Below, in pieces: positions 13,224-33,813 of a stretch of DNA of 33,813 nt (position 1 is the stretch's first letter; each line of letters opens with the position of its first letter). A program made the position numbers and the translations under genes. Origin of the DNA: Bacteroidales bacterium (lineage in GTDB: Bacteria > Bacteroidota > Bacteroidia > Bacteroidales > F082); contig JAFYJV010000027.1 in NCBI GenBank assembly GCA_017537965.1, positions 1 through 33,813 on the forward strand. Reading direction: 5' to 3'. The notes below the pieces were generated by a model, which was not told the origin of the DNA, did no database searches, and worked only from the letters and a program-made list of their open reading frames with translations.

Positions 13224-14129
13224 ATGAGACCTTCAAATTATGACCCAGAAGTCGAAAAGACACGGCAACACAATGCAAGAGTTTTTAGAGAAACAACAGC
13301 CATTATAAAGGCTGGTTTTTACACCACGCCTTCAGGCAAACGCGTTGACCTGAATATGCAACCAATGATTGACGGCGGACGCTGTTACCACAAAGAGCTT
13401 GCACAGGTCGACAAGCCAAAAGTGGACGGCAGAACAATCGTTAAGGTGGAGCGGGGCGACTGCCTAAAAGTAGCTGAGCGTCTTGTTAGGGAAGGCTATC
13501 ATCCGGCATTGCTCAATTTTGCCAGTGCTGGTCATCCTGGCGGAGGAGTTGAAACCGGAGCGCGTGCTCAAGAGGAGACCATCTGTCGACGCAGCACACT
13601 CACGCGTTCCATTTTCAGTTTTGATGCCAATTTTGCCCATCGGTACGGTTACACCCATCGAGACGGAAACAACTACCCCATCTTTCGTTCACTCGACTTT
13701 AGCATGGTCTATTCGCCTGAGGTCACGGTGTTTCGCGATGCTGGTCCGGATTACACACTAATGGAGGATCCTTTCAATGTTGCCATTATCACCAATGCGG
13801 CTCTTAACTTGAACGGCAAATTCTCTATTCTTCTCACGCATGACGGCTGTATGCCGGAAAAAGCCAAAGCCATTACGCGCAACAAGATTCGCGCAATATT
13901 GCGAATCGGTTTGATCAAAGGACACGATAGCCTCGTGTTGGGTGCTTTCGGTTGCGGAGCCTTCCACAATCCACCGCGTGAGATGGCTGGGCTGTTTAAA
14001 GAGGTGATGGCAGAGGAAGAATTTGCTGACCGTTATCGCCTTATTACCTTTGCGATCCTTAGTGACCATAACGACCACAGTCATAATTTGGAGTCATTCA
14101 AAGAAGTTCTTGACAAGTTGGATGACTGA
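13224..14129 (+). CDS. Bacterial-type poly(ADP-ribose) glycohydrolase family protein (TIGR02452/DUF2263)
   Basis: 301 aa. The family has a macrodomain-like PARG catalytic fold that removes ADP-ribose from modified targets. The signature GGG-X7-QEE is intact: 'HPGGGVETGARAQEETICRR' (104-123) with GGG at 106-108 and the catalytic Glu pair at 117-118. It is preceded by 'LLNFASAGHPGGG' and followed by 'TLTRSIF'. Later 'YSPEVTVFRDAG', 'NVAIITNAALNL' and 'VLGAFGCGAFHNPP' match the rest of the fold. The N-terminal part ('RQHNARVFRETTAIIKAGFY') is the usual family accessory helix. The ATG at 13224 gives a complete family N-terminus. Its 3' end overlaps the convergent small gene on the minus strand by 36 nt. 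No ADP-ribosyltransferase partner is visible, so its role (defence, toxin immunity or repair) is open. Confidence 0.88.
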   Translation: MRPSNYDPEVEKTRQHNARVFRETTAIIKAGFYTTPSGKRVDLNMQPMIDGGRCYHKELAQVDKPKVDGRTIVKVERGDCLKVAERLVREGYHPALLNFASAGHPGGGVETGARAQEETICRRSTLTRSIFSFDANFAHRYGYTHRDGNNYPIFRSLDFSMVYSPEVTVFRDAGPDYTLMEDPFNVAIITNAALNLNGKFSILLTHDGCMPEKAKAITRNKIRAILRIGLIKGHDSLVLGAFGCGAFHNPPREMAGLFKEVMAEEEFADRYRLITFAILSDHNDHSHNLESFKEVLDKLDD

Positions 14130-17513: not shown

Positions 17514-20500
17514 TTAATCAAGATGCGTTTTTAACGACACTAGATTCCCCGTCACTGAATAATAAACCAATTTGTCTAACACGCCAATTCCTGCTGCAAG
17601 CAATGCTTCTTCGTAGGCATTAAGCTGAGCTGCGTATTGCCCCACATATTCCTTAGCCGTTTTGTCCAGTGCTCTGCTCATAACGCCTGGATAGTTCTTG
17701 AAGTCAACCAGCACACATTCCTTGGGCGAGGTGTACCACAACAAATCCATTTCACCCACAACAACCTGTCCGCCAATCTCGTGACGGAACGGGACCTCAT
17801 GCTCCACCTTATGTGCTTTTCCATAGGTCTGCTCCAAAAACTGGTACAGACTGGCTATCGAAAGAAGAATATCATCAACATCAGGCAACATCTTTGTCAT
17901 TCCGTAGGCATTAATGATTTTTTGGGCCTTCTCACGCATTTCAACATTGCCAATATCAGGACGATAGATGGCAAAAATGTTGTGGATGCAGGTGCCCATA
18001 ATGTCGTATTCATCGCCAGAACCGACATGGATGGGGTGAGGCGTTACGTCTTGCACCGGATAAACCACACAAGGCTGCACCTTGTCTTTTAGTGCATCGT
18101 CAACCATCTTGCTCGGCGACAAGTATTTTTCCTCCAATTCCGTTTTTGCTTGATGCTCTTTTCGACAGAAATAGTGCTCTGGCTCAGGAAGGCTCTCGTA
18201 GCTGCCATCGTCAGCCACTTTCACGAACCTCGATTCCGCAATGCTTTCACCTTGACCCCAGATGGCCTGATAATCGCCCGAGTCGTTAATAACAGACTCT
18301 ATGCCGGCAGCAAGCATCCATGGCAACTGTTTCCCTTCTAACGAAGTAGTGACAAGATAGTCACGAGCTCGCGTGACTCCCACATAAAGAAGACGGCAAG
18401 CTTCATAAAGCTGTCTATCAACATATTGATGATAAGTCTTCAATGTGTCAATATCCGCCATCATGTCATCGGATAATTTGGCGTTTGAAGCCGACAAATA
18501 AGCTGGAAGACAAGTGAGACAATATTCGGAATAAAGCTGACTCTCGCTTGGTTGGTTTATTCTGACATAGTTGACCCCAATAGCAAAACGCTTTTTAAGT
18601 TTGTTGTCGTTCAACGAGTCATCATCCAACGAACATAGAATAACCACATTCCACTGCAGACCTTTGGAACGGTGATAGGTAAGCACATGTACCCCTTCAT
18701 TGAAGAAACCTTCTTTGATGGTCACGCCTTCAGTATCAAGATGGTCAAGATATTGCTCTATCGAAGAGGCTTCGCCCATGGTTTCGGCATTGGCATCAAA
18801 AGCCTTCGCATCTTCGATGATGGCCTGAAGGGTTCGTTCACGTTGATCCGCCATACCCCATTTGTGGCAACGGTTGATGAGGTCCAATTCAATAACCAAC
18901 GTTTTCACTATATCGGCCACTGGAAGAGCCTGCAACCGCTCTTTCATTGCATTTAACTGGTTGAACACAGAAGACTCCAACAATTGTTGCTTGTTTTCCA
19001 AAACGTCTTTTGTCTTCACGCCAAAGAGCAAATGAGCGATTTCCGCTTTCAAAAGCGGTGACTCTTCTGCCATGTAGTTGAGCAACAATCTTACAAGCTG
19101 CATTTCCTTGCTATTGCCGTCCACAACGCTTTCGCAAACCACGGGAATATCTTTGGCATTCAAAGCTTCAGTAATAGCGTTTACGTCGTTGTTACTCCTA
19201 GCCAAAACCGCAATGTCTGAGTACGTAACAGAGCGAGGTCTCCCACTTCCCTTATCGATGACTTCTTTGATTTCACCACGGCCATCCACCATATCTCTTA
19301 TCTGAAGCGCTATGGAATTGAATAGTTTCTCCTTGTTGGCCGTAGCCCTTGTTTTTCCTGGTTCAAGCGTCTTTTTCTGTTCCCAATGCCATAGAGCTGG
19401 AGTATTGCCCGGCAAAGACTCCGTTCGGTGTGCGGTGAGCGTAACCATATCAGGATCCAGGTCATCAAACACCCTCGTAAACACAGCCGAGGTGGCATCC
19501 ACCAAAGGCTTCACCGAACGGCGCGACTCCTTTAGGGTGTCGTAGTCCATTCCATTGTTTCCTTTGTCTTTGATGACTTTATCCGTCAAAGCCTGCACCA
19601 GCACGGTGTCGCACCCTCTGAAGCCATAGATGGCTTGTTTTGGATCACCCACCCAATAGCTTCGTTCCACCAAATCCGATAACAAGTCAAAAATCTTGAT
19701 TTGCTTCGGATTGGAATCCTGGAACTCGTCCACAAAGACGTATTTGATTGACCTCGAAATCTCGGACTGTACCTCTTTGTCCTCCAACAGCTGGATGAAC
19801 TTTGTCTCCATGTCGTTGAATTCAATCAGCCCATGCTCTTCCTTGAACTGATTGAAAAGCACATACCAATCTCGTGCGATACGGAAAATGCGATGAATGC
19901 AGTCGTTGTACATTCTGCGCAACTCGTTTTCACTCTTTTGGGTTTTCCCATTCAAGAAAGAGAAACGTCCGTCAGCTCCCAAAAGCAACTGGGCCAATTC
20001 GATCGACTTTCCCTCAGACACCGCCAAATCAGTGATGCCGAAAGCATCAGCTTTTTCCACCAGGTTCTGCACTAACGACTTCCAAAAGTTGTAGTCAAAT
20101 TTGGAAGAAACGCTCATTTTGATGCCAAAGGTTTCCGTGTACTCCCTGAATGCGGCGACATCCTCATCACTAACCACCTTGGTCAAAGTACGGTTGAGAT
20201 AACCCATCTTGGCTTCATCCGTAATGGTTTCAACCGAAGCGCTCAATCCCAACTTGTACCAGTATTTCTTGATGTATTGCAATCCTATTGAGTGTACTGT
20301 CCCGATAGCTGCAGAGTCAAGCTCGGCAGCCTCGGTAAACAAACCTCTTTCCAAAAACTTCTCTCGCGCATTTTTCTTCAGGTCTGCAGCAGCATCATTA
20401 GTAAAGGTTGAGGCTATGATCTGCGATGGAGTGCATTGGTGGTTGATGACTTTGTTAGCCATTTCCTCTGTGAGGCGATAGGTTTTGCCAGAACCGGCAC

Positions 20501-20528
20501 CAGCGTTGATATAGGTAATGTTTTTCAT
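17514..20528 (-). CDS. UvrD/AddA-like helicase-nuclease
   Basis: 1004 aa superfamily 1 (UvrD/RecB/AddA-type) DNA helicase with a C-terminal PD-(D/E)XK nuclease. Helicase motifs: Walker A 'AGAGSGKT' (9-16), Ia 'ASTFTNDAAADLKKNARE', Walker B/II 'VFVDEFQDSNPKQI' (264-277), III 'VGDPKQAIYGFRG' (293-305), V 'VHVLTYHRSKGLQW', VI 'LYVGVTRARDYLVT'. The nuclease has 'VGEMDLLW' (Asp928), 'VLVDFKNYPG' (Asp942, Lys944) and a downstream 'GQYAAQLNAYEEAL' with the RecB-type Q-x2-x-Y pattern. It should process double-stranded DNA ends together with the overlapping AddB-like gene (TGATG overlap at 20528). The N-terminus (MKNITYINAGAGSGKT) and the setting differ from the usual chromosomal addA, so I regard it as an accessory pair, possibly in defence. 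A housekeeping AddA role is not excluded. Confidence 0.88.
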   Translation of the reverse strand: MKNITYINAGAGSGKTYRLTEEMANKVINHQCTPSQIIASTFTNDAAADLKKNAREKFLERGLFTEAAELDSAAIGTVHSIGLQYIKKYWYKLGLSASVETITDEAKMGYLNRTLTKVVSDEDVAAFREYTETFGIKMSVSSKFDYNFWKSLVQNLVEKADAFGITDLAVSEGKSIELAQLLLGADGRFSFLNGKTQKSENELRRMYNDCIHRIFRIARDWYVLFNQFKEEHGLIEFNDMETKFIQLLEDKEVQSEISRSIKYVFVDEFQDSNPKQIKIFDLLSDLVERSYWVGDPKQAIYGFRGCDTVLVQALTDKVIKDKGNNGMDYDTLKESRRSVKPLVDATSAVFTRVFDDLDPDMVTLTAHRTESLPGNTPALWHWEQKKTLEPGKTRATANKEKLFNSIALQIRDMVDGRGEIKEVIDKGSGRPRSVTYSDIAVLARSNNDVNAITEALNAKDIPVVCESVVDGNSKEMQLVRLLLNYMAEESPLLKAEIAHLLFGVKTKDVLENKQQLLESSVFNQLNAMKERLQALPVADIVKTLVIELDLINRCHKWGMADQRERTLQAIIEDAKAFDANAETMGEASSIEQYLDHLDTEGVTIKEGFFNEGVHVLTYHRSKGLQWNVVILCSLDDDSLNDNKLKKRFAIGVNYVRINQPSESQLYSEYCLTCLPAYLSASNAKLSDDMMADIDTLKTYHQYVDRQLYEACRLLYVGVTRARDYLVTTSLEGKQLPWMLAAGIESVINDSGDYQAIWGQGESIAESRFVKVADDGSYESLPEPEHYFCRKEHQAKTELEEKYLSPSKMVDDALKDKVQPCVVYPVQDVTPHPIHVGSGDEYDIMGTCIHNIFAIYRPDIGNVEMREKAQKIINAYGMTKMLPDVDDILLSIASLYQFLEQTYGKAHKVEHEVPFRHEIGGQVVVGEMDLLWYTSPKECVLVDFKNYPGVMSRALDKTAKEYVGQYAAQLNAYEEALLAAGIGVLDKLVYYSVTGNLVSLKTHLD

Positions 20529-23203
20529 CAGACAAGTCCTCCTTTCAATACGATGTTTTTGTTTCCGTAACTGGTTCCTTTCAATTCTTTATCGTAATAA
20601 TCCCGTCTCAACGGATAGAGTTGTTGGGTGATTGCGTCTTTCTCATACTGCAAGTCAGCTAACTCCATACCCTCACCCTCTTCAATAAGACCTGCTTTCA
20701 ACTGGTTCATTCTATAAGTATAAGAATTTGCTGCCAGTTGCATCAAGTCGCTATTACTCTCGGCTTCAACAACTTCTATGCTGCCCTTTTGAGGCCTCAG
20801 GCTGTCGTAAACCGTATAAAGGGTATGTCTTGGGAGCACAAAATAACCCATAAAACTCACTCTATGTGGATCGCTTGTATCTTTCAAGTGTTGTTCCAGA
20901 ACGGCTCGATAGACGGCCAGTTGCAAGGCGTCGTTTTGTTCTAGTTTGGTTTGATAGGTTTTGCTTTCACTCCATTTGAAATCAACAATGACATAGTCAC
21001 CATTGTTGTCGGTCAACACATAGTCGATGTATGCCGTCATCTTTCCAATGACGGGGAGGTTGGCATCGTAATGTTGTTCAGCCCCGACAATGGTCAGGTT
21101 GTTCTTTTCAATGATGTCAAGCAGAACGTCCACACTCTTTTTCAAAAGGGATTTGAGACGCTTGAACTCCAAATCGTTCTCTTCCAAAAGCAGGATAGCT
21201 CCTTGCGTTTCAGCCAAGTAGCTGACAATTTCGACAAATCTAGTGTTATGAATTTGGCGCATGGACGAAACACAGCGCTGACCTTCCTCGGTCAACTTTT
21301 CAACGTAAGCATGTGCCACTGTTCCCTTTACGGTATCCATGTCAGCCATGGCCGCCTTGCCATATTCTTTTAGATGAAGGATGTAGTCCATTACATAGTC
21401 AAAAGGCCTTTGGATAAGCTCGTCAAGACTGCTATAACTTTCTGCCTCACGTTTCAAACCTCCGTCTTCCTTTGGGGTGTCAAGTAGACCAAAAACTGAA
21501 GGATTAATCTGATACTCGCTTTGCTTTTCAGAAGCGGCTTCAACGGGCTTCTGTTCCATATCATGCAGCTCAGGCACTTTCGCCTGAATGACTAAATTGC
21601 CTTTGTGTCGCAGTTCAGTCGCCACTGGGTCTTCAACGGGAATCTCGCCACCGATAACCTCACATTCAAGCATGACAATACGCTCTCGCACATTCGACAA
21701 CACGCCAAGCATCATCTCTCGTCTGGCTTTCAGCAGTGTTTCTCTGTCAGCCACTTCAAGCCTGTTTGTTTTGAGGATGTCGATTTCTTCAGGATTCAAG
21801 AAATCAAGTTCATATTGGAAACGATATTCTGGAGTCGTACAAGCCCAATAGAGCACGTTAGGCGCAGTATGAATGTCAGTCACAGCACGAGTCACATCGA
21901 TGGCACCTCTACGGGCTGACAAAGTGGTCAACTCAACGGGGCGATTGATTTGGGCAGCCCACAGCATTAAATCATGGGTTTTGATGGTATCAGGCTCATC
22001 ATCCAATATCATCAGCATGGTCTCGCAATTGCTCACAATGGCATTAAATTGCGTAGCCTTGGCTTCATCGTAAAGATTCTGTTTCGCCCACTTCTTCATG
22101 GATTCGAGATACTTTACCACCACTACCTTATCGACAGTACAGCCGTCACCTTGTCCACTAACCTGTTTCCATTGGTTGATGAACAACAATGCCATAGATC
22201 GCTCGGGCGATTTTGTCTTGTCATTACCCTCGTAATCATACACAGCTTCATCGATGAGTGCATCCCATTTTTCGCTGATGCCATTATCCTCCACCAGCTG
22301 TTCAATAAGCGCACGATGCAGTGACTTGTAATAATCTTTGCCGTCTTTGTCTTGTCTTTTGACGCATAGCTTGTTCAAAGGCATTGCCGGCAGCTGAAGG
22401 TAGGCAAGCAAAGTGTTTACATTGAGAGGCTTATTGAAAAGGCCAAGTCCCAACGTAAAGATCTGCATGATAGCTCCGATGGCATTACTTTCAGCACCAA
22501 CCTGAGGCTTACCGTCTAATGCAAGGTTCAGATTAAGAATGGAAGTGTCGTCGCAAACCACAACGTCATTATCGCCTATCGGCTGTTGTGCCAGCCATTC
22601 AGCCATTTCTATGTCATTCTTAAACGAATAGACGATTGCTTTGTCGTGCAAATTACCGTCGATTGCACACGGCTTGTAGGACACATTGCAACCCTGCGAC
22701 GACATACTGTCAAATAGTTGCCGATACAGCGGCTCTAAATGCCTTTGCTCACAAGTCACTACAATGCAATCGTCATCGCCGAGCAAGGGCGAAGTTCGGG
22801 CAAAATCAAGAAGACCGCGCCAACGGTCGGCCTCTCCTTTTTCTTCAAAGCAAGCTTCCACCAAGGCCAAATCGTCGAGGCGACGGCTACCCGTGACGAG
22901 TCTGTTCCAGCCCGATTTCACCAAAGCATCGCGCCAGCCCAAGATAACAATGGCTGTACCCAGCTTATCCTTCTCAAACGACTTGGCAAAGAACAAGCCA
23001 GTGTTCTTAGTGATGGCTTTTTTCATGGCTCTGGCATAATGCACAGCCCGCTGAAAGTTATCGGAATATCTTCCTGTCAATCCAACACGAAGTTCCAGCT
23101 CGGCAAGCAGGCCTTGTGGCCCCACCACTTTCTCGCCGATAACGCAACTCGTGGTCTTCACATAGACCTTGGAGTCGTAATAAGGGTTAAAGATGAGTTT
23201 CAT
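20528..23203 (-). CDS. AddB-like PD-(D/E)XK nuclease
   Basis: 891 aa. The C-terminal PD-(D/E)XK nuclease (PDDEXK_1 type) is clear: 'GKMTAYIDYVL' (720-730, Asp727), 'VIVDFKWSES' (Asp741, Lys743), then 'QLAVYRAVLEQ' (about 761-771). The N-terminal and middle parts ('ILGWRDALVKSGWNRLV', 'VVVCDDTSILNLNLALDG', 'FNKPLNVNTLLAYLQLP') look like the inactivated helicase scaffold of AddB/RecC, without a Walker A motif that I can find. It would partner the AddA-like protein, with which it overlaps by one base in a TGATG junction. Start at the ATG at 23203 (MKLIFNPYYDSKV). Upstream lies a 405-nt stretch with pseudogene and repeat sequence, listed separately. Confidence 0.83.
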   Translation of the reverse strand: MKLIFNPYYDSKVYVKTTSCVIGEKVVGPQGLLAELELRVGLTGRYSDNFQRAVHYARAMKKAITKNTGLFFAKSFEKDKLGTAIVILGWRDALVKSGWNRLVTGSRRLDDLALVEACFEEKGEADRWRGLLDFARTSPLLGDDDCIVVTCEQRHLEPLYRQLFDSMSSQGCNVSYKPCAIDGNLHDKAIVYSFKNDIEMAEWLAQQPIGDNDVVVCDDTSILNLNLALDGKPQVGAESNAIGAIMQIFTLGLGLFNKPLNVNTLLAYLQLPAMPLNKLCVKRQDKDGKDYYKSLHRALIEQLVEDNGISEKWDALIDEAVYDYEGNDKTKSPERSMALLFINQWKQVSGQGDGCTVDKVVVVKYLESMKKWAKQNLYDEAKATQFNAIVSNCETMLMILDDEPDTIKTHDLMLWAAQINRPVELTTLSARRGAIDVTRAVTDIHTAPNVLYWACTTPEYRFQYELDFLNPEEIDILKTNRLEVADRETLLKARREMMLGVLSNVRERIVMLECEVIGGEIPVEDPVATELRHKGNLVIQAKVPELHDMEQKPVEAASEKQSEYQINPSVFGLLDTPKEDGGLKREAESYSSLDELIQRPFDYVMDYILHLKEYGKAAMADMDTVKGTVAHAYVEKLTEEGQRCVSSMRQIHNTRFVEIVSYLAETQGAILLLEENDLEFKRLKSLLKKSVDVLLDIIEKNNLTIVGAEQHYDANLPVIGKMTAYIDYVLTDNNGDYVIVDFKWSESKTYQTKLEQNDALQLAVYRAVLEQHLKDTSDPHRVSFMGYFVLPRHTLYTVYDSLRPQKGSIEVVEAESNSDLMQLAANSYTYRMNQLKAGLIEEGEGMELADLQYEKDAITQQLYPLRRDYYDKELKGTSYGNKNIVLKGGLV

Positions 23204-23484: not shown

Positions 23485-23611
23485 TTATTACGCCCAATTC
23501 TCTTTTAAACTTTACATTTTTCGTCTAAATCTCATTAACCAACAACTTCTTTATTTATAGGTTATTACAGCAGCGTTTCGTCTAAAAAAAACAATTTTTG
23601 TCTAAATCTCA
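23441..23611. repeat. Four dispersed copies of TTTCGTCTAAA-type motif
   Basis: Copies at 23441-23452 (TTTTCGTTTAAA), 23518-23534 (TTTTCGTCTAAATCTCA), 23576-23586 (TTTCGTCTAAA) and 23595-23611 (TTTTTGTCTAAATCTCA). The second and fourth agree over 16 of 17 bases, and the last overlaps the stop codon of the AlbA-type gene. Spacing is irregular. They may be operator-like binding sites, remnants of duplicated 3' ends, or recombination scars. Confidence 0.7.
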
Positions 23612-25276
23612 CACCAATACCCATAGACGTTTTTCATTGAGCTTAATAATATTCTTCTTGGCTAACGAATAGAGCAAGTTCTTTATCTTGTTCTTCTTCT
23701 GTTTTTCTGACAACACATCCGACAACTTGTTCATCAGCAATTCGTCAATCTCAGCTCTGCTGGCAGACCCGAATTTTTCGATATATTGGACGATTAATCT
23801 GCGGAAATACTCATCATCAAAACTCTTGTTCCTTACATACGTTGATTTCAACCCCACATTGCCCGTGTTTCTGGTTATGGACTTTGAGAGAAATAGATTG
23901 TTTTTGCGCCCCTCGATGTATTTTTTCTTTCTCAAATACTTGATTTCCTCGTCTCCCAATCGTTTTTGCTTCTGAACCTTGTCAAGCAGAATCATATCTG
24001 ACATAGACAGTTCGGGCACGCTTACAAGTATCCTTGCAAACTGCTCGTCGATGACTTTGCCTTCGATGTCAACGGTCACCATCCCTCCCGAAGTGTCGTA
24101 TTCTGGCATGGGGAAGAAACGCTTCTTTTGCTGCTCATACAGTTTCTTGATACCACCACCTTCCGTATCCACCATGTGTACGTTCCTCATGGCCTCTACC
24201 AAGAACGGATTCCGATAGATGGACTCAGGGCTGTCGTCTAAAACCACTTTCTCAACTGATTCGGGCAAGAAAATGCCATGATTTCTGAACACCAAATGGT
24301 CGTTCTCATATTCAATCACCTCAATCCTCGCACCTTTGTCGTAGTCCTGATGGGCAATGGCGTTATTCAAAGGCTCTCTTAAGGTGAACTCGTCGTATCG
24401 GTATAGTTTCTCCGGAAAGATGTTACCGCTGATGGTAAACTCGTATGTGGTATTCCTGATTTGCCGTCCGATGTCCTCAATAGCCAGTATCATCGGGATA
24501 GAGAATATCTTGAAATCAAGATTCTCGGCTTTTTCATTCTTCAGCGACCACCTTACTTTGCAGACTTTCGGCAGCAGGTAATGCTCCGATTCCTCACGTC
24601 CTAACAATATAATGGCAGCAATGGTTATTTGTCCTTTGATGGTGATATGCGCCTTGTTCAGGAATGTCTTGTCGTCCCATCCGTCTACTTCTTTCTCCTT
24701 ACCTGGATGGACTTCCTTGTACTTGTCGCGAGCCTTCTTGATGGCAGAAGGGTCAAGGTCGTCCATGGTGGCATCTGGGAGAATCGTGGCGGTCCAGTCT
24801 TGCTGTAGCAAGCCTTCGCTTAAGATGGCATCCTCACGCTCACGGGTCAGTGGTACGAGGTTGTCTTTGATTCTCTGCCAGGCTTTCTTGTGGGCATACA
24901 CAGGCCTGCGTGGAAGATGCTTGGGGATGTGGATAACCCACACCACCTTGTTCGTGTCGCTTGTCACGTATTCGTCAATATATAGACCTTCAGATGACAC
25001 ATTTGTGCAATTCTCCTTGATTTTATAGACGGCAGAGTTGGTGTCGAGATTGAACTGCGACAGGTCTGTTCCCACAATCTCCAGCGTCTTGTCCACAACG
25101 CCAATCACAAGCGTGCCACCCTCCATATTTGCGATGCCTGACACATACGACATCACATCCTCTCCTTCGTGTCCGTTGAAAGAGTTCTTCAGGTTCTTCA
25201 ATTCTTTCCAGTCGCACTTCTCATCCTCCACAGGATAATGCGCAATCAAGAATTCTCGTAGTTCGTTTTCTGTCAT
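23609..25276 (-). CDS. Schlafen AlbA-domain ATP-binding protein (putative regulator)
   Basis: 555 aa. An N-terminal AlbA_2 (Schlafen-like, PF04326) domain at about 18-140: 'EKCDWKELKNLKNSFNGHEG', 'GIANMEGGTLVIGVVDK', then 'AHKKAWQRIKDNLVPLT'. A central HATPase_c_4-type domain at about 290-400: 'LREPLNNAIAHQDYDKGARI', 'LVFRNHGIFLPESVEKVVL', 'RNPFLVEAM', 'TEGGGIKKLYEQQKKRF'. The C-terminal part (about 480-555, 'SRAEIDELLMNKLSDVLSEK') looks like a winged helix. Proteins of this layout are annotated as ATP-binding or transcriptional regulators and are common in defence and mobile regions of Bacteroidota; the true activity is poorly known. Start at the ATG at 25276. Remnants of a related gene lie on both sides, which suggests replacement or insertion. 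Confidence 0.85.
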   Translation of the reverse strand: MTENELREFLIAHYPVEDEKCDWKELKNLKNSFNGHEGEDVMSYVSGIANMEGGTLVIGVVDKTLEIVGTDLSQFNLDTNSAVYKIKENCTNVSSEGLYIDEYVTSDTNKVVWVIHIPKHLPRRPVYAHKKAWQRIKDNLVPLTREREDAILSEGLLQQDWTATILPDATMDDLDPSAIKKARDKYKEVHPGKEKEVDGWDDKTFLNKAHITIKGQITIAAIILLGREESEHYLLPKVCKVRWSLKNEKAENLDFKIFSIPMILAIEDIGRQIRNTTYEFTISGNIFPEKLYRYDEFTLREPLNNAIAHQDYDKGARIEVIEYENDHLVFRNHGIFLPESVEKVVLDDSPESIYRNPFLVEAMRNVHMVDTEGGGIKKLYEQQKKRFFPMPEYDTSGGMVTVDIEGKVIDEQFARILVSVPELSMSDMILLDKVQKQKRLGDEEIKYLRKKKYIEGRKNNLFLSKSITRNTGNVGLKSTYVRNKSFDDEYFRRLIVQYIEKFGSASRAEIDELLMNKLSDVLSEKQKKNKIKNLLYSLAKKNIIKLNEKRLWVLV

Positions 25277-25326: not shown

Positions 25327-25443
25327 TTATCTGGCAAGGTGCCACCCTAAACAACTCTCTGGGAAACCGCCTTTGGCCGATTTGTATTCCAATTCGGTGT
25401 CCTCTGCCAAGCCTATCTGTTTTCTTATCTGTTCTGTGGTCAT
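25327..25443 (-). pseudogene. N-terminal remnant of a second AlbA_2-domain gene
   Basis: The ATG at 25443 opens 38 codons ending at TAA 25329-25327. The first about 30 residues, 'MTTEQIRKQIGLAEDTELEY' followed by KSAKGGFPES, are a typical AlbA_2 domain start (IGL.ED.E.E.K.A.GG.P.S). Immediately after, where the family continues with LW.T.SAFANT.GG, the homology stops ('CLGWHLAR' then stop). So only the first strand-helix of the domain survives. The intact AlbA_2 gene begins about 50 nt downstream and is different in sequence. Confidence 0.65.
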
Positions 25444-25452
25444 AATATGTTT

Positions 25453-25539
25453 CTATTTGCTTGCAAAACCTGCTACTTGAATCACTTTCTTGGTCACCTC
25501 GCCATGATCTCGTGATGATAGTGTTTCTTGTGCTGTCAT
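25453..25539 (-). other. Short open frame with promoter-like leader
   Basis: A 28-codon frame from the ATG at 25539 reads 'MTAQETLSSRDHGEVTKKVI' plus QVAGFASK. It ends at a TAG nine bases before the ATG of the AlbA_2 remnant and is in the same frame. TATTTTTG on the minus strand at 25572-25565 matches a -7 box. I do not recognise the peptide; it may be a remnant or a leader. Low confidence as a gene. Confidence 0.25.
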
Positions 25540-25597: not shown

Positions 25598-26218
25598 TTA
25601 TTCCTTCTGTAGATTATCATCATCAAGTGGACACAATTTGTCATAAATGTCATAAAGATACGAAAAACTATTAAAATTCATTTCCTCTTCCTCTCTATCA
25701 TAACACGAAAAACGTTGATCTGTTGCATTTTTTATCTTTTCACAGGCAACAACAGGATCTATCCCTCGAATTTCAATGTTATACATGAATATTCCAAAGC
25801 AAATATGCATATCAGCAGATATAAGACTTTGGCGAGGCCCCAACACATAGCATATTTGTGAACAACATTGAAACAATGTGTAGGCTACTTGCATCAATCC
25901 TCCCCTGCAACAAGATAGCATCAAAATACTATCGTCATTTATACAATGATTTTTACATAATAGAGACGCAAATTCTTCCCATTTCATATCCACTTGTTTA
26001 TCTTCACTTGCAAAACTTTCTGCACAACCGTGAGCACTTAAGTATATGTAATCAAATTGCCCATTGGAAGACAAAATTATTTCCAGTTCTTTATTGTCTT
26101 TTACTTTTTTGCAAACACTTTCTATTTCGTATAATTGAGCCTGTTCACAAATCCCATTACACTCATGCGGTTCATCCGAATTGCCACATGCTTCTATCAC
26201 TAAAATCCTTTTCTTCAT
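25598..26218 (-). CDS. Caspase-like (CHAT-type) cysteine protease
   Basis: 206 aa from the ATG at 26218. The whole protein is one caspase/CHAT-like fold: an N-terminal strand 'KKRILVIEACG', a second strand with the catalytic His in 'FDYIYLSAHG' (His63), the nucleophile strand 'SILMLSCCRGG' (Cys104 aligns with the usual L-S-A-C position; Cys103 is next to it), then 'ICYVLGPRQSLISADMHICF' and 'EIRGIDPVVACEKIKNAT', matching the 'G.....A...F....L..G.....A' end of CHAT domains. No signal peptide and no extra sensor domain, so it is likely a cytoplasmic effector activated by a partner. It is the last gene of a tight unit, 16 nt after the 329-aa gene and behind the DUF1998 helicase. Substrate unknown. 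The fold call rests on motifs; activity is inferred. Confidence 0.75.
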   Translation of the reverse strand: MKKRILVIEACGNSDEPHECNGICEQAQLYEIESVCKKVKDNKELEIILSSNGQFDYIYLSAHGCAESFASEDKQVDMKWEEFASLLCKNHCINDDSILMLSCCRGGLMQVAYTLFQCCSQICYVLGPRQSLISADMHICFGIFMYNIEIRGIDPVVACEKIKNATDQRFSCYDREEEEMNFNSFSYLYDIYDKLCPLDDDNLQKE

Positions 26219-26234
26219 AAAATTAAAAGTTACT

Positions 26235-27224
26235 TTATTTATTTCTCACATAATACACCTGCTCTGTACTTGAGCAAATTGGTATTCTTGCATTTACACC
26301 ATTATTTGTGCCATAGAATTGCCTATCGGCTTGACATTGTTGCACATCAAGACCCCAATGTGCCAATCCAGCATCAGGCATGATGCGCAAGACATTATTA
26401 CCTGCTTTTACCATCAGTTCCCTATAATGAGGGATTTCCTTCTTTTCTTTTGATTCGAAAACAAACTTGTCATCATTAATCAGCACATTTCCAATCTCAT
26501 CACGTTTTCCATCGCTGATGAAAGAATCGCCCAATCTTCTATACCCTTCATCGTTGGCTCTTGGATCAGAAAAAGACTCTCCAATCATTTTTACTCTATA
26601 GGAACTTGGATGCAATACAGCTATAAGATCCTTTATAAATTGAAGGCATATTACTAAAGCCAATTCTGTTTTAACATATCTGTCGCTATATGTGATTTCT
26701 ACCTGTGCGTTCTGATTGTTCTTGCAAAAATCATTTATATCAACAAGTTTTCCACTTACCTTTTCGAACAATTCTCCGACTCGTATATTTTGCGCTTCGA
26801 TTATACCCTGCTGCCAACCTTGTGGAAATTGAGGTGTATAACGGTTGAAAGCAGGGATTGGTTTATTGTTCCAATCAACTTTATAGACATTGTCCAAAGC
26901 CCAATCGCCATTCAACAAAGAATACTCCTCCTTGTCGGTGAAGTACATGGTGTTGTCTGCCAACATAATCGGATAGAATCCGTTTCCCAGAGTAAAACCG
27001 CTATTAACGGTAAACAAGTTTGCCCAATCAGACATTTTGAACAACGAAATTATGTGTTCATCGGGAAGAGTGTGCGGCAAATCAAACAGACACACATTTA
27101 ATTTTTCACCTCCATTATTTGGTCTAATACTTGATAAACGAGGCGTTTGTTTCCATGAAGATTCGTCTGCATCATATATTATCGAGTTCAGATTGCTGAA
27201 ATTGAAGAATAGTATCTTTTCCAT
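26235..27224 (-). CDS. Unrecognised 329-aa protein of the helicase operon
   Basis: 329 aa from the ATG at 27224, 6 nt after the helicase stop. I do not recognise a family with confidence. The N-terminal half has 'LNVCLFDLPHTLPDEHIISL' and 'YSLLNGDWALDNVYKVDWNN'. The C-terminal half has 'VEITYSDRYVKTELALVICL', 'HYRELMVKAGNNVLRIMPDA' and 'GLAHWGLD'. The order 'I.Y.D.Y...', a helix, a strand, then 'H.RE..V' and 'G..HW' recalls phospholipase D-like/MIT-C folds, but a canonical HxK motif is absent, so this is only a hint. Tight spacing on both sides indicates co-expression with the helicase and the caspase-like protein, perhaps as an adaptor or second enzyme. Confidence 0.8.
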   Translation of the reverse strand: MEKILFFNFSNLNSIIYDADESSWKQTPRLSSIRPNNGGEKLNVCLFDLPHTLPDEHIISLFKMSDWANLFTVNSGFTLGNGFYPIMLADNTMYFTDKEEYSLLNGDWALDNVYKVDWNNKPIPAFNRYTPQFPQGWQQGIIEAQNIRVGELFEKVSGKLVDINDFCKNNQNAQVEITYSDRYVKTELALVICLQFIKDLIAVLHPSSYRVKMIGESFSDPRANDEGYRRLGDSFISDGKRDEIGNVLINDDKFVFESKEKKEIPHYRELMVKAGNNVLRIMPDAGLAHWGLDVQQCQADRQFYGTNNGVNARIPICSSTEQVYYVRNK

Positions 27225-27230
27225 GACTGT

Positions 27231-30200
27231 TTAATTAAGTGTTTGTATAATTTCTAAAAACGAAGAGGCTTGAGTCCCGGGATATGCATTTGTAATGTGC
27301 TGTGGAACATCTCTTCTATGCCTTGATTCCTCGACCAACCATTCCAGTGCAGCCTTTATGTCAATCTCATCGGAATAGCGTTGGGTATAAGTGTCAAGCA
27401 GGCTGAAAAGCGAATTGCAGCTAGCAAGTTTTGTCCGACAATAATCCAATGCTTTTTCAATTTTGTTTTGGTTCAACTGGTTGGAGTATCCAGCACCACC
27501 TTTGGCTTTATCATAAATGCATAAGGCAAGAGCTTCTTTTCCTGTTGTAATAATGAAATCAATATCATTTCGCTCGCAAATGCCTTCATTTACCATAAAC
27601 GAGCAGAACAGCACGCCGAGAGTAACTAAAATCTTCCGATCGTCTTCGGTACTGAAAATATGAAGATTATTTAGATTATCACTCCGATAGAAACTGATTT
27701 CACAGAAATCTGTTTGGACAAGGCCGCCGATAATAATATTTCGGAATAGTTTATCATCAATATCATCCCTGGATGTATCAAAAAAACAAGTCTTTGTCAC
27801 ACCGATTAAATCGTTGTGATAACGTAATTCGGTGTTGTTTACAACTGTTTTGTTTTTGTAGAACAACTCTACCACTTCATCGTTGTGTTGTTTGTTTGTC
27901 GAATCTTCCTCAATCTCGGTCTTTCCGCATTTTTTGCAAACCCGATAACCGTATCCTTTTCCATCGTTGTATATTAAAATTTTCGAAGTGGTGTTGTTGG
28001 AATCACTAACGCGGTGTGAGAACCAGCCCCGAGTTGGTTTATGAATTGGGGAAGCCCCAATGAGTTCCGCCTTTGCTCTTGTGTAGTTCTTGTTGCCATC
28101 CGTAATCCTTGACCTATCTGTAGTTGGGATAAATGCTATTGGCTCAATTAATTTTAACTCAGTGGCGTTGTTCACAGACCATACTTTCAAGTTGGCACTA
28201 CCACACAAAGGACATTTCGTTTCTTGCGACACCCATGTGTGTCCGCAAGTTGCGCATTTCCGGATTTCCTTCCATGACTGGTTGTAATCTCGTTGTACTC
28301 CACCAATCTGATAAGTGGTATCCTTTATGGTGATATAGTTACCTGGAGCCCATTGTCCAAGAGCCGTTGCGAGGTCGTATGTTGGGTTTTCATTGTTTTT
28401 CGAGTAACTGCCTTTAGCATCCGAAATCTTGAGTTCAACAATATTGACAGGCATGTTTGCATTAGGCAAGAATTGATGATTGGACAAGAAAGTCAGAAGA
28501 TTGTCTTTCAATCGACTTGTGAAATCATAATTCAATCCTTTTCTATATTTTTTTAATGAGTTCGCCCCTATGTTGGAATTGCTTTCAGCATCTGCTTGTC
28601 TTTGTTTCAAAGTTTTAAAATACCCGTCAATCTCCTCTTTCCATATTTTTTCAATGGCATCAGCGGTATTCTTTACATAACTATCGAGTCTTCCTCCAGC
28701 ATATACCGTCCCGTTAATAATGCGCAAAAGACCTTTACGAACTTCATTATCTTGTTGAGTCCTTGGATGGTCAAGATGCAAACCATACAAGAAAATGACA
28801 AAGTCATTCCAACTGGCATTTTGTGTTTGTTGGGTGTCGTATGGGATTTCGTCGGGGTCATCACTGCCATTGGGACGCACTCGCTTTCCATTCAGCTTGT
28901 ATTTCACATAAGTATAATCCGGTCTATCAGTTTTATCGTCAATTCTCCACTCGTAATTAGTAAACAAATCCATCACTTCTGACATTAAACCAACTGTATT
29001 CCACTTTTGTTTAAACAAATAGCTATTGATGTGTCTTTGCAATACTTGCGGACTATTCAAATCAACTGTTGGCGGTTCTATTTGTTTGGTGACGTTTGTC
29101 TTGGAATCAGCGAAGAATGCCGCATCAACGCCGTCCGAGCCGCAAATGGTCAAGCAGGCACTGTGCGTCTGACCACGACGACCGGCACGGCCAGCGCGTT
29201 GTTTGTAATTGGCTGGATGTGGTGGGATATTTGTCATTTCAACAAGTTCTACACTACCCAAATCAACACCCATTTCCATGGTGGTCGAACACGAAAGAAC
29301 ATTGATTTTGTGTTCTTTGAAATCTTTGATGCGTTCTTTGGTTTGTGTTCTTCCCAATTGTGCCGTATGCTCGGATTGTATGAATAGATTTGGCTTCTGC
29401 ATAAGAGCAATGGTTTGGTTTGGAACGGCGACCTTGTCATACAATCCTGTCAACGGATTTTCATCGTATGGAGAATAATCCTTAAAGGTCGTGGTCAGAT
29501 AGCGATTGGTTACGGGGCATTTCCACGCGGTTCCGGGCAAAGAAAATGCCATTCTGCTCACATTCATACGACCTTGCTCATTAGCATTATAATCGGGGTC
29601 AAGTTCATCTGGAACCCATGCATTATCCCTATAATCTTGTCCTAATTCAATAATATTATTGTTGTAAAGCACATCCCAGCAGTAATCAAGCACATTGTCA
29701 ACGAGGCTTTTTTTGTTAGGACTCAATTGGTCATACCTTTCACCCAACAAGTTGCATAGGAGCTTTTTGTATTTGTCCGGCACATTGTGTTTTCCTTTTT
29801 TCACAGTTCTCCTTACACCATTTACGGTTCGGAGATTTCTACAAGCTGAAATGGAAATCTTATCCCAAACTTTTGGATTGTTACGCTTGAAAAACAGACA
29901 TTCATTAATTCTAACTTTATGATCAAGATAAATTGTCAGAAAATCGATCCAATCATCAACTGTGATTCGTTTGCCGGGATCGTTTATGGCGGCATTCAAA
30001 TCAGATAATACTTGTGGCAGACCATCAATTACCCATTGTTCTCTGAGCACAGCAAAATCTGGGTAAACGACCTTGATTTGACCTTTGGTTTCAGCGGTCT
30101 GCGCATTCTTCTGACGATATTTGAACACCTCATACAAAGCGGCAAGAACATATTTCTTTTTGTACTCGACATAGTCGTCCAAATCCTCCTTTGACGCAAA

Positions 30201-32339
30201 TTGTTTTGCAAAGTAATCGCAATAGGGATCATCATGCAAAGCATCAAGAGCTTGGTTCCATGAGAGTGTTTGATTTGTAAGATTTTGAATTTCATTCTCA
30301 AGGCGTTCTATTTCTCTTCTGTTGTCTTCTGTTTGCAATTCGTCATAATTCTGTTTTGCAGCAGCAAGCGATCTTTTTCGTTGATTAATTAAAGTCGCAT
30401 TGTTATTATGCATGGAAACAAGTTTATTATAAACCACCCATTCCACCCAATTCCTTTCGCTCTCCTTGTTTTGTTTAAGAGTAGGCTTTGCTGCTTTATC
30501 GCGACTGTCAGCAAAAGCAATCATTTGCTTGCCTTGGTAAAGAAGTCCAGTTGTATTTGGTGCACTTTGTGCTTGGTCAAGCAGCGAAGGAGCCAAAACT
30601 CTTGCTACTTTATCAGCCGCCACATTGAATTGTCGAACCGAATGTTTCATGCCGCATATTGGGCAAACATCGCTCTCGGCATAGCGCACATACTTATCGC
30701 CGTTTATAACTTCCATATCTGGAGACAAGTCGAAAGGATTACATTCCTGATCCAATGTTTTACCCAAGGCCTTTGCAATGTGTTCCGCATTGTTTTTATG
30801 AGTCACCAAAAATGCGCCGTCTTCTCCACCGACTGATATAACTGATATATTTGTAGTGTTATCATCATCCGTATCGTCATCCGTGTCAACATCAATGGCA
30901 TTATCGAATATAGATGTAGTTGAAATAACACCTTTTGTCAGTTTGTTGTCGACCAAATTACCAGATGCAAAGACGGTTCCGCAATGATTACAGAATTTTG
31001 CCTCCAAAACATGCATATCGTACGAACCAGTGTTGGGGTCTATATCAATCTCGTCAAACAACGAAAAATTGTTATTCGTGGCAGTATTCATATTCACAAA
31101 TAGCCCCCTGTTCAGTGCTTTAGCGAAGAGATGTAGCTTTACTTTAAGTCCGGCATTGCACAAATTATCAAGAGCATCCAGCTTGTCTTCCACGCTCATA
31201 TTCCCCGAAATCATCTCCCCCAATGTCAGAAAAGCCTCATCGTGAAGGTGTTGAAATGAGACATTGTTGATAGATTGCAGGCTTCTGTTTCCTCTTATTA
31301 CATCGATTTCATTTTGAGGTTTGCCGGTAATGTCCGAAATAAATTTGACAAGGTCTTGTGTTCCATTGATTCCTCCAACTGTAGCGGATGATGTCGCAAA
31401 ACGAACATTATCGATAGAAGTGCCAAAGGCATCAAGCACACGACGTATAAGCAAAGCCAGTTCAGCAGCTCCTGCACCCGTAAATGTGTGTGTTTCATCA
31501 ATTACAATCCAACGTAACTGATTTTGGGAGGCTTCCAATATGGGTTGATCGTTTGTCCTCAACAGCAAATATTCAAGCATGGTTGGGTTTGTGAACAAAA
31601 TGTTAGGATGATTGTCGCGTATCTCATCTCTTAGCACATATTCGTGTTTCCTTCTATCGGCTAACACTGTGGTTACGTTTCTATCAACGTCATCAACATC
31701 TTCTGGAGTGTTTCCGTTGTAAACCGCAAATCTCAACTCTTGCCCAGAACATTCAATGCACTCGCTCATTCTGGTTCTTTGATCGTCCATTAGAGCATTC
31801 AATGGATAGAGGAATATGGCTTGTACAGGCTCAGGTTGGGGTTGCTGCCCATCTGCATGACGTTTGACATACTCATCCGCCAAATCTTTCACCAACGGAA
31901 CCATAAAGCACTCGGTTTTACCCGAACCAGTGCCAGTTGTAACACAAATTGATTTGCCACTCAACAGTTTTTCCCAACTTTCGACCTGATGTTTAAAGGG
32001 ATTGAATGGTTTATCTTTGAAAACTGCCGTTCTATTCGTTTCAAGACTACATTCTTCTTTGGTGATTTCATTTCCATTACTATCCTTTTCATCCCATTCA
32101 CGCCAATACTGTTTTGGCAACAAGGTGACTGGAAATGTCGGCGCACTTTCCCATTCACCCATGTCTTCCACAAGAATGTTGTCGCCCGTGAAGCATCCAT
32201 TGAGGATGTCATCCAACCGATTCTCATAATCTTTTAGTGTGACACCGCCCTTCCACAAATCTTTGTTTTCAAGCCAAATGTCTTTGATTTGTTCTTTTAA
32301 CTGCTTTTTACAGTTTGAGTATAATTCTTTAAATCTCAT
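27231..32339 (-). CDS. Giant DEAD/DEAH helicase with C-terminal DUF1998 domain (DruE/MrfA-like)
   Basis: 1702 aa superfamily 2 helicase. Motifs: Q-like '[15 protein letters not shown]' (112-126), Walker A 'TGTGSGKTE' (135-143), Ia '[11 protein letters not shown]', Ib '[11 protein letters not shown]', Walker B 'IVIDETHTF' (278-286), III 'SSAT' (317-320), then a long insert before the second RecA lobe with '[20 protein letters not shown]' (near 1020) and VI '[12 protein letters not shown]' (near 1050). Cys pairs at about 450/453 and 559/562 suggest a split zinc-binding unit in the insert. 'CATCGHTW' plus 'CPLCGS' (1362-1379) and 'CKKCGKTE' (1468-1471) give further zinc ribbons. The end has the DUF1998 signature '[12 protein letters not shown]' (1608-1619). 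Relatives include Druantia DruE, DISARM DrmA/DrmB, DpdJ and MrfA, all acting on nucleic acid, mostly in defence or repair. Size is closest to DruE. 5 nt after the upstream gene. Confidence 0.92.
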
Positions 32340-32344
32340 ATTAT

Positions 32345-33813
32345 TTAGTTGTTTAATAAATTCATAAAGAAGTCGTTATTTGAGAGTTCGTCTAAAACTG
32401 TTTTCCGAGAAGATGAATCCACGTTCCAGAAACAAGCTTTTGCGCTAGAATTGACACCTGTGCCTCTGGTAAAATCATTCAACATTGTTCTCAATACAGT
32501 ATTAGTATTTCCAGTTGCTCTATTTGGAAGTTGCACTTCCCAGAAGATATTGATAAATCCAGTATAACCACTTTGTTTTTTTCGCCTAGGATTGTTAAGC
32601 AACAATTCTTTAACAGAACCCCTTTCTTCTACTTTCCAAATATCACGTGGGATTAACATCCAATCAAATAAAAACTCATCTGCCATTCGCCATAGAGAAG
32701 TATAGTCGACGATTTCAGCTGTTTCTATGTATCGTCTGAAAAAGTTCGCTAGATTATCGGCCGAATATTCGCTCAACACAAGGCTTTCGTGATAGCTCCT
32801 AATATTTTTAATATTTTCATCATAATGACAAACAAGCCCCATAAGCGCATCAAAACTACCGAAATAATTTCCAGTCTTAGAAGCTGCTTCAAAATAAGCC
32901 AAAGCATCATTAAATCTATCTGCATTATCACTTAAATAACTATTGTGGCATTTGTCAATCCTATTTAAACGTCTGCCTCTTCGTTGTTGCTCATTTAAAT
33001 TCTCAACACTATCTATATTGGGAACATAAAAAGGTCTGATGAAGTATTTTGGGATATCATACTTTTTAACTTGTTGCATAATGATGCCTTCTGAAAATCC
33101 TTTCACGTCAAAACAACAAGATCCGTCATCTTTGCTAATTAGTGGAATCGGCACAAGCTCTCTTGGATTGTCAATAGCTGAAAACACAAATGTCAGATCA
33201 CTAAAATCAAGATTTCCTCGATTTATATACGGTTTCCCGTTTTCCCATTTGAATTCAGTATGAGTAAATGTCTTGAAAGAAACATATGGTAAATCCGCTT
33301 GGTTTACAGTTGGATTGAATCGATACTCTTTCAAATCTATAAATGCTCTTTGGAGCTTATCGTATCTCGAAAGTTCAATTTTATTATTTTCCGGCAGTTT
33401 AAACGCTTCTAATTTGTCAATAGCACAAATAGGCAACCTAAGACCATTGTTGTTGCTCCCGACATCAAATATAACACCATTTGTTTTTCTCTTGAACACG
33501 ACGGCATCAATGGGTTGAGGATAGGTTAAGTCAAAACTCATATTACCATCGGAGATTGTATAAATTGCATTAGGGTTGTGATAATCAATTTGTTTTCTCT
33601 GCCAATGCATTCTTTTAACGCCATTATCATCCCTTAAAACCTCATTATTAATAGAAATCGTCAACTCTCCAAAACCGCGAAAGCTCGTTGTCAAATTTTC
33701 ATTATCTATCAACTTTTTGTTAGTTTCCGACCATTTGGGTAATGCAAAACAATCGATGGTTTTTGACTTTTCTTTAGCTTTAATCGACACTTGACATTGG
33801 AAATAACCTAATT
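32345..33813 (-). CDS. Unrecognised protein, first visible gene of the helicase operon (N-terminus off window)
   Basis: At least 489 aa. The frame remains open to the right edge. A GTG at 33790 could serve as a start, but the residues before it (LGYFQCQ) read on naturally, so the true start is probably outside. The stop is 5 nt before the helicase ATG. No family recognised. Visible parts: a beta-rich N-terminal region ('[20 protein letters not shown]', '[20 protein letters not shown]'), a helical region with '[20 protein letters not shown]' and '[20 protein letters not shown]', and a C-terminal '[20 protein letters not shown]'. In type III Druantia the gene before druE is druH, so a DruH-like role is possible, but I see no motif to prove it. 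Confidence 0.75.

What the first reader, a model, noticed from the sequence alone, without database searches (positions are those of the whole stretch)
25598..33813. Candidate defence operon: DUF1998 helicase plus caspase-like protease plus two unknown proteins
Four same-strand genes are spaced by 5, 6 and 16 nt: an unknown protein (>=489 aa), a 1702-aa DEAD/DEAH-DUF1998 helicase, an unknown 329-aa protein and a 206-aa CHAT-like protease. DUF1998 helicases are the core of Druantia (DruE), DISARM (DrmA/B) and Dpd (DpdJ); caspase-like proteases serve as cell-death effectors in several bacterial immune systems. I do not know a described system with exactly this set. The inferred logic is helicase-based detection of foreign DNA followed by proteolytic activation of cell death or of a partner.
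Basis: partly seen in the sequence, partly recalled or inferred. Interest (0 to 1): 0.85.

Follow-up and report, generated by a model that had tools for sequence, protein, structure and literature searches.

The report
Portable caspase-like gene on defence operons
The locus is a Druantia-III-like anti-phage operon whose helicase-nuclease is split into two genes and whose last gene encodes a small caspase-like protein; close relatives of that gene sit at the end of several unrelated bacterial defence operons, which suggests a plug-in protease that adds a second, probably suicidal, line of defence.

Summary

The four genes are not a conserved unit. The protease is portable: in 9 of 9 intact loci with upstream sequence it directly follows another operon: Druantia-III-like, Ssp, Ssp-Pbe, Dnd-Pbe, Type-4 BREX or helicase-methylase-HATPase. 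Its divergence does not track theirs; 4 of 10 loci carry a RES-domain gene after it. Most likely it is a recurrently acquired second-stage (death) protease, like the nuclease-protease pairs of PMC12799240 but on other systems. Proteolysis and targets are inferred.

The parts
32345..33811 (-). C-terminal >=488 aa of an unknown gene in the position of DruH, cut by the contig end
   Evidence: no PADLOC hit at E<=0.1 while DruH of L032/L033 score E 7e-117 and 9.5e-103; hhalign against a 3-sequence DruH alignment is not significant
27231..32339 (-). DruE-type helicase part (YprA-family SF2 helicase with Zn-binding MZB domain), 1702 aa
   Evidence: PADLOC DruE3 PDLC00036 E 2e-243; Pfam DEAD, Helicase_C, MZB; about 30% identical to Chryseobacterium DruE over 1213 alignment columns
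26235..27224 (-). DruE C-terminal PLD-nuclease region as a separate 329-aa ORF, same frame as the helicase, after one TAA and two further codons
   Evidence: PADLOC DruE3 profile positions 1770-1982 of 2023, E 1.1e-17; alignment to the C-termini of three full-length DruE with a shared DRY motif and H-x-R...D-x-G; junction read; Pfam finds no domain in it
25598..26218 (-). 206-aa caspase/CHAT-fold putative protease, predicted dyad His63/Cys104, terminal gene of the operon
23609..25276 (-). Schlafen AlbA_2 + HATPase_c_4 protein, 321 nt beyond the protease; candidate backup effector or substrate (association only suggestive)
   Evidence: Pfam SLFN_AlbA_2 E 1.9e-10, HATPase_c_4 4.3e-11; such genes follow the protease within three genes in 6 of 10 intact loci

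Best explanation
The locus is a Druantia-III-like DNA-targeting defence operon in which DruE is split into a helicase ORF and a PLD-nuclease ORF. A portable caspase-like gene is appended as the last gene. The protease is not a Druantia component. It is an optional second-stage module that Bacteroidota defence operons acquire at their 3' end, where it is transcribed, probably translationally coupled, after the primary system. Shown: gene order, homology, predicted fold, invariant catalytic-type residues, purifying selection among the less diverged copies, attachment to different systems, and divergence that does not follow the host system. Inferred: the protein is made as a latent protease, is triggered when the primary DNA-targeting system engages or is blocked, and cleaves a partner (the RES-domain gene where present; elsewhere perhaps the Schlafen-type neighbour, a defence subunit or host proteins), stopping growth or killing the infected cell.
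For: Caspase fold and invariant His63/Cys104. In 9 of 9 intact loci with upstream sequence the gene directly follows another gene on the same strand, spacing about -17 to +37 nt depending on the start chosen. Operons: DruE3; SspB/C/D/E; Ssp-Pbe with GmrSD and kinase; Dnd-Pbe; Type-4 BREX with BrxP, BrxC, PglZ, BrxL; SNF2/PLD helicase + methylase + HATPase. dN/dS 0.04-0.10 in all non-saturated pairs except two near-identical ones; pairs with the window are saturated. Swapping: L016 (BREX4 judged from a 161-aa fragment) and L017 (Ssp) proteases 95% identical, synonymous difference 0.11; L020 and L021 share Dnd-Pbe core genes at 90-97% but proteases only 80%, synonymous difference 0.77. A RES-domain gene follows in 4 of 10 loci. 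Precedent: protease-activated pro-effectors recurrently acquired by unrelated immune systems (PMC12799240); terminal suicidal genes in echeloned operons (PMC11090510).
Against: No activity, substrate or phage data. The protease is optional: of 25 genomes with SspD in the genus of P. dentasini (348 searched) 1 has it intact and 2 have remnants; 0 of 12 fetched SspD loci (12 of the 22 others) have gene or remnant in the stretch read. The only Druantia example is this window. No downstream partner is universal. The DruE split rests on one in-frame stop in one assembly and could be decay or an error, so this Druantia copy may be inactive. The protease has degraded in four other genomes. The loci were found with exact short peptide patterns, so distant relatives in other contexts would be missed. 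The model was built from only 10 similar sequences.
Confidence: 0.5

Rival explanations
1. The caspase-like protein is a processing or regulatory protease of the primary defence system (it matures, activates or limits a subunit), not a death effector.
For: It is at the end of the operon in every locus with upstream sequence. Several host systems share parts: PbeA and the L015 helicase combine an SF2 helicase with a PLD domain, and DruE does so by homology (PMC12458937 passage).
Against: No component common to all systems was seen: in the genes scanned, the Type-4 BREX and SspE-type Ssp loci have no PLD helicase. Ssp-Pbe core operons occur without the protease. Protease divergence does not follow the system.
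Confidence: 0.17
2. A mobile or passenger gene that survives by inserting behind expressed defence operons, without a functional link to them.
For: Rare and patchy (1 of 173 genomes in the window's family; 1 intact among 398 of one genus), optional, often degraded, exchanged between operons together with neighbouring accessory genes.
Against: Purifying selection, invariant catalytic-type residues, and every intact locus with readable upstream sequence lies behind a defence operon (9 of 9, one of them assigned only from a 161-aa fragment). No transposase or repeat boundary was looked for systematically.
Confidence: 0.17
3. A toxin-antitoxin-like unit: the caspase-like protein restrains or degrades the RES-domain toxin, and the unit hitchhikes on defence operons.
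For: Protease and RES genes are adjacent (RES begins about 20 nt after the protease stop) and kept together in 4 of 10 loci with RES 90-100% identical.
Against: 6 of 10 loci, including the window, have the protease with no RES gene next to it.
Confidence: 0.1
4. A pseudo-caspase that works as a thiol- or metal-responsive sensor or scaffold instead of a protease (12 invariant cysteines in about 193 residues).
For: Cys at 11, 20, 24, 36, 88, 103, 104, 119, 123, 140, 159 and 172 invariant in 10 of 10, and a conserved His/Cys-rich N-terminal motif.
Against: His63-Gly and Cys104-Arg-Gly resemble the SHG and QACRG motifs of caspases (motifs recalled).
Confidence: 0.06

Closest known systems
Recurrently acquired nuclease-protease pairs and Canu (PMC12799240, Science 2025; abstract and passages seen)
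   Same: A protease gene acquired by several unrelated immune systems; in Canu a caspase-family protease acts on a downstream effector
   Different: There a trypsin fused to Hachiman, AVAST, Lamassu or DRT proteins, or a caspase with Ig-like fold, partnered with an MBL nuclease. Here a standalone short caspase-fold gene behind Druantia-III-like, phosphorothioate, Type-4 BREX and helicase-methylase-HATPase operons; neighbours are RES, Schlafen-AlbA_2 or unassigned genes, with no MBL nuclease among those scanned. Druantia, BREX and Dnd do not occur in that main text.
Druantia type III, DruH-DruE (PMC13192584 sections 9 and 13 and passages; PMC12458937 section 7 and passages; PMC13316683 abstract and outline)
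   Same: DruE3 helicase with C-terminal PLD region, preceded by a large unknown gene
   Different: PLD part on a separate ORF; upstream protein not recognisably DruH; extra caspase-like gene
Backup effectors of BREX and Dnd systems (PMC12839542 section 34, first part of 35, passages; PMC10853773 passages)
   Same: Auxiliary suicide effectors appended to DNA-modification defences, among them Schlafen-HATPase-wHTH proteins like those seen here
   Different: In what was read they are mainly nucleases; the word caspase does not occur in either main text
CHAT/caspase effectors of bacterial immunity (SAVED-CHAT 8tl0, Csx29 8eex, Borvo as listed in PMC10952713)
   Same: Caspase/CHAT fold
   Different: A single small domain without room for a SAVED or TPR sensor; no Pfam match

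Membership tests
Druantia type III | DruE3-type helicase | tested here: met
   PADLOC DruE3 E 2e-243 against DruE1 3.4e-117 and DruE2 4e-75
Druantia type III | C-terminal PLD nuclease region of DruE | tested here: met
   Present by homology, but as a separate 329-aa ORF; Pfam finds no PLD domain in it; nuclease activity not tested
Druantia type III | DruH partner | tested here: inconclusive
   Only the C-terminal 488 aa are in the contig; no DruH profile hit, hhalign not significant; positive controls hit. DruH is described as substantially more divergent than DruE
Caspase/CHAT clan | Caspase-like alpha/beta fold | tested here: met
Caspase/CHAT clan | Catalytic His and Cys | tested here: met
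   H63-G and C104-R-G invariant in 10 of 10; geometry in the model not measured
Caspase/CHAT clan | Match to a curated family profile | tested here: not met
   Pfam and PADLOC 0 hits at E<=0.1; the L013 homologue has only sub-threshold Pfam hits, among them C13 at E 0.16
Caspase/CHAT clan | Proteolytic activity | not testable with these tools
   -
Canu (caspase-nuclease) | MBL-fold nuclease gene downstream of the caspase | tested here: not met
   Window: next annotated gene is Schlafen-AlbA_2. Elsewhere the downstream genes scanned with Pfam are Schlafen-AlbA_2, Fic (behind a remnant), YhcG or unassigned, none MBL; not every downstream gene was scanned (none of L015's)
RES-domain proteins (downstream partner) | Similarity to annotated RES-domain proteins | tested here: met
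   tblastn 28-31% identity, best E 2e-22; 6 of the 7 plasmid records matched are annotated RES domain-containing protein, 1 has no annotation. Against: Pfam gives no hit for the L013 copy, no PDB sequence matches, AF2 model poor, pLDDT 41
RES-domain proteins (downstream partner) | NAD+-consuming toxicity | not testable with these tools
   Activity of RES toxins is recalled

The most novel reading that the evidence does not exclude
One transferable caspase gene serves as a general-purpose execution switch for many DNA-targeting immune systems (phosphorothioate systems, Type-4 BREX, Druantia, helicase-methylase-HATPase). It reads a shared signal of engaged or blocked restriction and fires by cleaving exchangeable partner effectors, including a RES-domain pro-toxin: a prokaryotic counterpart of an executioner caspase shared by several upstream sensors.
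Probability: 0.28. Interest if true: 0.82.

Novelty: new variant of a known kind. Interest (0 to 1): 0.6.

Why it matters
Recurrent acquisition of protease-effector modules has been reported for Hachiman, AVAST, Lamassu and DRT systems (PMC12799240). If the reading here is right, the principle extends to restriction-type systems (phosphorothioate, BREX, Druantia) with a single small caspase and exchangeable partners. That would make the question 'what common signal do unrelated DNA-targeting systems hand to a shared death protease?' testable in one set of constructs, and RES would be a candidate proteolytically activated toxin.

Tried and rejected
Rejected: a conserved four-gene system (the protease is not next to DruE in the other 8 loci with upstream sequence). 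Rejected: the 329-aa gene as a new component (it is DruE's C-terminus). Left open: DruH identity of the upstream gene; hhalign aligned 25 residues at 0.1% probability, which is not evidence; NCBIfam and PHROG hits for it are weak (E 0.021 and 0.039). Weak: Schlafen-AlbA_2 as obligate partner; 6 of 10 protease loci against 2 of 12 protease-free Ssp-Pbe loci (a third has a 100-aa fragment), Fisher p 0.074; two of the protease-free loci are cut by contig ends and the two sets were not counted by identical criteria. A 38-aa ORF at 25327-25443 looked to me like an AlbA_2 start, but BLAST gave no hit at E<=1. An AF2 model of the RES protein failed (pLDDT 41), so no fold search was run on it. The first genome-contig scan with the helicase found nothing. 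Protease in plasmids: best E 0.4 and 0.05, not significant; phages: none at E<=0.01; PDB sequences: nothing significant. L031 (G853, E 5.7e-4) was not supported by DNA comparison and is not counted as a remnant. L023 (truncated) was left out of alignment A2. L018 and L019 are near-identical and not independent. No tree was built; the swapping claim rests on pairwise identities and synonymous differences.

Not-in-print searches. Druantia with caspase: 3 papers; the single caspase mention in PMC11090510 is a CARD-like domain in another system, PMC10952713 lists CHAT for Borvo and CRISPR III-E, and PMC10542128 was seen only in the listing. Many subscription papers are not held.

Full report
WHAT IS THERE. 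Four codirectional ORFs on the - strand end a 33813-base contig, with gaps of 5, 6 and 16 nt. The genome is held as 41 contigs, 2.32 Mb, 93.8% complete, 4.1% contamination.

THE HELICASE IS DruE, SPLIT. The 1702-aa protein matches PADLOC DruE3 with E 2e-243, far above DruE1, DruE2 and DruE4, and carries Pfam DEAD, Helicase_C and MZB. The 329-aa protein matches the end of the same DruE3 profile (1770-1982 of 2023, E 1.1e-17) and aligns with the C-termini of three full-length DruE proteins, sharing a DRY motif and an H-x-R...D-x-G pattern. Published work places two PLD nuclease domains there, the last one predicted active (PMC12458937 passage; PMC13192584 section 9). The helicase ORF ends in TAA; two codons later the 329-aa ORF starts with ATG in the same frame. 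This may be a real split with reinitiation, a recent nonsense change or an assembly error; no close relative was found to decide.

THE UPSTREAM GENE. Its visible 488 aa match no PADLOC family at E<=0.1 and do not align significantly with the presumed Chryseobacterium DruH or, by hhalign, with an alignment of three DruH. DruH proteins of two genomes of the same phylum as the window were found by the same library with E 7e-117 and 9.5e-103, so the search works. I therefore call the locus Druantia-III-like.

THE PROTEASE IS A PORTABLE TERMINAL GENE. In all 9 intact loci with upstream sequence it directly follows another gene on the same strand; L013 begins at a contig end. Window: Druantia-III-like. 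L015: SNF2/PLD helicase, Eco57I-type methylase and a 672-aa protein with a weak HATPase hit (E 0.006); PADLOC's HmaA hit on the helicase is 1.7e-30 but not the best hit, so 'Hma-like' would be an architectural label only. L017: SspB, SspC, an SspD homologue, SspE. L018 and L019: GmrSD-type protein and kinase, identical in the two; L019 extends to SspC, an SspD homologue, PbeA and a PbeC-like gene in two ORFs, while L018 is cut at its contig end. L020 and L021: DndC, a DndD/PbeC-type ATPase, DndE, PbeA, PbeC (profile hits made on L020 except DndE on L021; the operons are 90-97% identical in these genes). L022: BrxP E 4e-276, BrxC, PglZ E 2e-181, BrxL, DndB, that is Type-4 BREX, which is phosphorothioate-based (PMC12839542 section 34). 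L016: only a 161-aa end of a DndB-like gene 79% identical to that of L022. The window's own genome has no SspD match (the same query matched 25 of 348 genomes of the genus of P. dentasini), so the window is not a phosphorothioate locus of that type.

SELECTION AND SWAPPING. Non-saturated protease pairs have dN/dS 0.04-0.10, except L016-L017 (0.28, few changes) and L018-L019 (1.16 on 1% synonymous difference); all pairs with the window or L015 are saturated at synonymous sites (0.77-0.96) with non-synonymous differences of 0.16-0.20; RES pairs have 0.11-0.15. L016 (BREX4 end, from the fragment) and L017 (Ssp) carry 95%-identical proteases (synonymous difference 0.11). L020 and L021 share Dnd-Pbe core genes at 90-97% amino-acid identity but proteases at 80% (synonymous difference 0.77); their last accessory genes are also diverged, at 53-74%. 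The terminal region, not the protease alone, is thus exchanged independently of the core. No tree was built.

NEIGHBOURS BEYOND. In L013, L018, L019 and L022 the next gene encodes a 354-361-aa protein whose plasmid relatives are annotated RES domain-containing (6 of 7 records, 28-31% identity, E down to 2e-22). L017 and L021 instead have a related 302-313-aa protein of unknown function. Schlafen AlbA_2/HATPase proteins lie within three genes downstream in 6 of 10 intact loci (window, L013, L017, L020, L021, L022), against 2 of 12 protease-free Ssp-Pbe loci by BLAST, with a fragment in a third; Fisher p 0.074, not significant.

RESULTS AGAINST. The gene is rare and optional. Single-sequence search: 1 of 247 in the order, the window itself. 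Profile searches at E<=0.001: 1 of 173 in the family, again the window; among 398 genomes of the genus of P. dentasini 6 matches, namely 1 intact, 3 N-terminal remnants, 1 C-terminal remnant and 1 weak hit that DNA did not support; 4 of 379 in a further set, all already known; 1 of 45, already known. By their handle numbers all 25 SspD genomes were also searched: 1 has an intact protease and 2 have remnants. Of the other 22 I fetched 12; none has gene or remnant in the 8-16 kb read. Remnants in L023 and in L029/L030 stop near codon 31-33.

MECHANISM. The position suggests an echelon: the DNA-targeting system acts first and the terminal gene is made last, as proposed for other superoperons (PMC11090510 passage). 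DruE loads on 3' single-stranded DNA and is called a helicase-nuclease effector (PMC13192584 section 9 and abstract). A caspase-type protein behind it would be a second response. Protease-activated pro-nucleases are reported for trypsin pairs and for Canu (PMC12799240 abstract and passages), whose authors think other proteolytically activated effector classes possible. The RES gene is the best candidate partner; in the window the candidates are the Schlafen-type protein, DruE-C or host proteins. Trigger, activity and substrate are inferred.

VERDICT. What remains is a short caspase-fold gene, not found in print within the searches named in Tried and rejected, attached to at least six operon types. 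Ssp, Ssp-Pbe, Dnd-Pbe and Type-4 BREX are phosphorothioate-based; the Druantia-III-like and helicase-methylase-HATPase operons are not known to be.

Noticed in passing
L023 10001-10120; L029 and L030 near 1490-1590; L037 about 9848-9972 (- strand): Remnants of the protease gene: N-terminal remnants in two contexts both stop near codon 31-33, and one C-terminal remnant precedes genes 99-100% identical to those of L021; possible recurrent breakpoint.
   Followed up: partly
window 25598-26218 and alignment A2: 12 invariant cysteines and 3 invariant histidines in about 193 residues; metal or thiol chemistry possible.
   Followed up: no
L034 3262-12087 (G588): A 2099-aa DruE-related helicase (BLAST) directly downstream of an 821-aa PIWI-like protein (PADLOC PprPIWI E 7e-69).
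   Followed up: no
L042, L077-L088: Hybrids of Ssp (SspD; SspC in L042) and Pbe genes in the genus of P. dentasini with a variable 3' end after PbeD.
   Followed up: partly
window 13224-14126 (+): Microbial-type PARG protein (PF10021 E 1.3e-34); ADP-ribose related.
   Followed up: no
window 17514-23203 (-): AddA/UvrD-like helicase and PD-(D/E)XK nuclease pair, probably housekeeping AddAB; the PADLOC GajB hits look like general UvrD similarity.
   Followed up: no
window 25327-25539 (-): Two tiny ORFs (38 and 28 aa) between the protease and the Schlafen-type gene; the first looks by eye like an AlbA_2 start but BLAST does not confirm it.
   Followed up: partly
L014 7931-17871: Chryseobacterium plasmid with a WYL-domain gene immediately upstream of the presumed DruH-DruE pair.
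   Followed up: no
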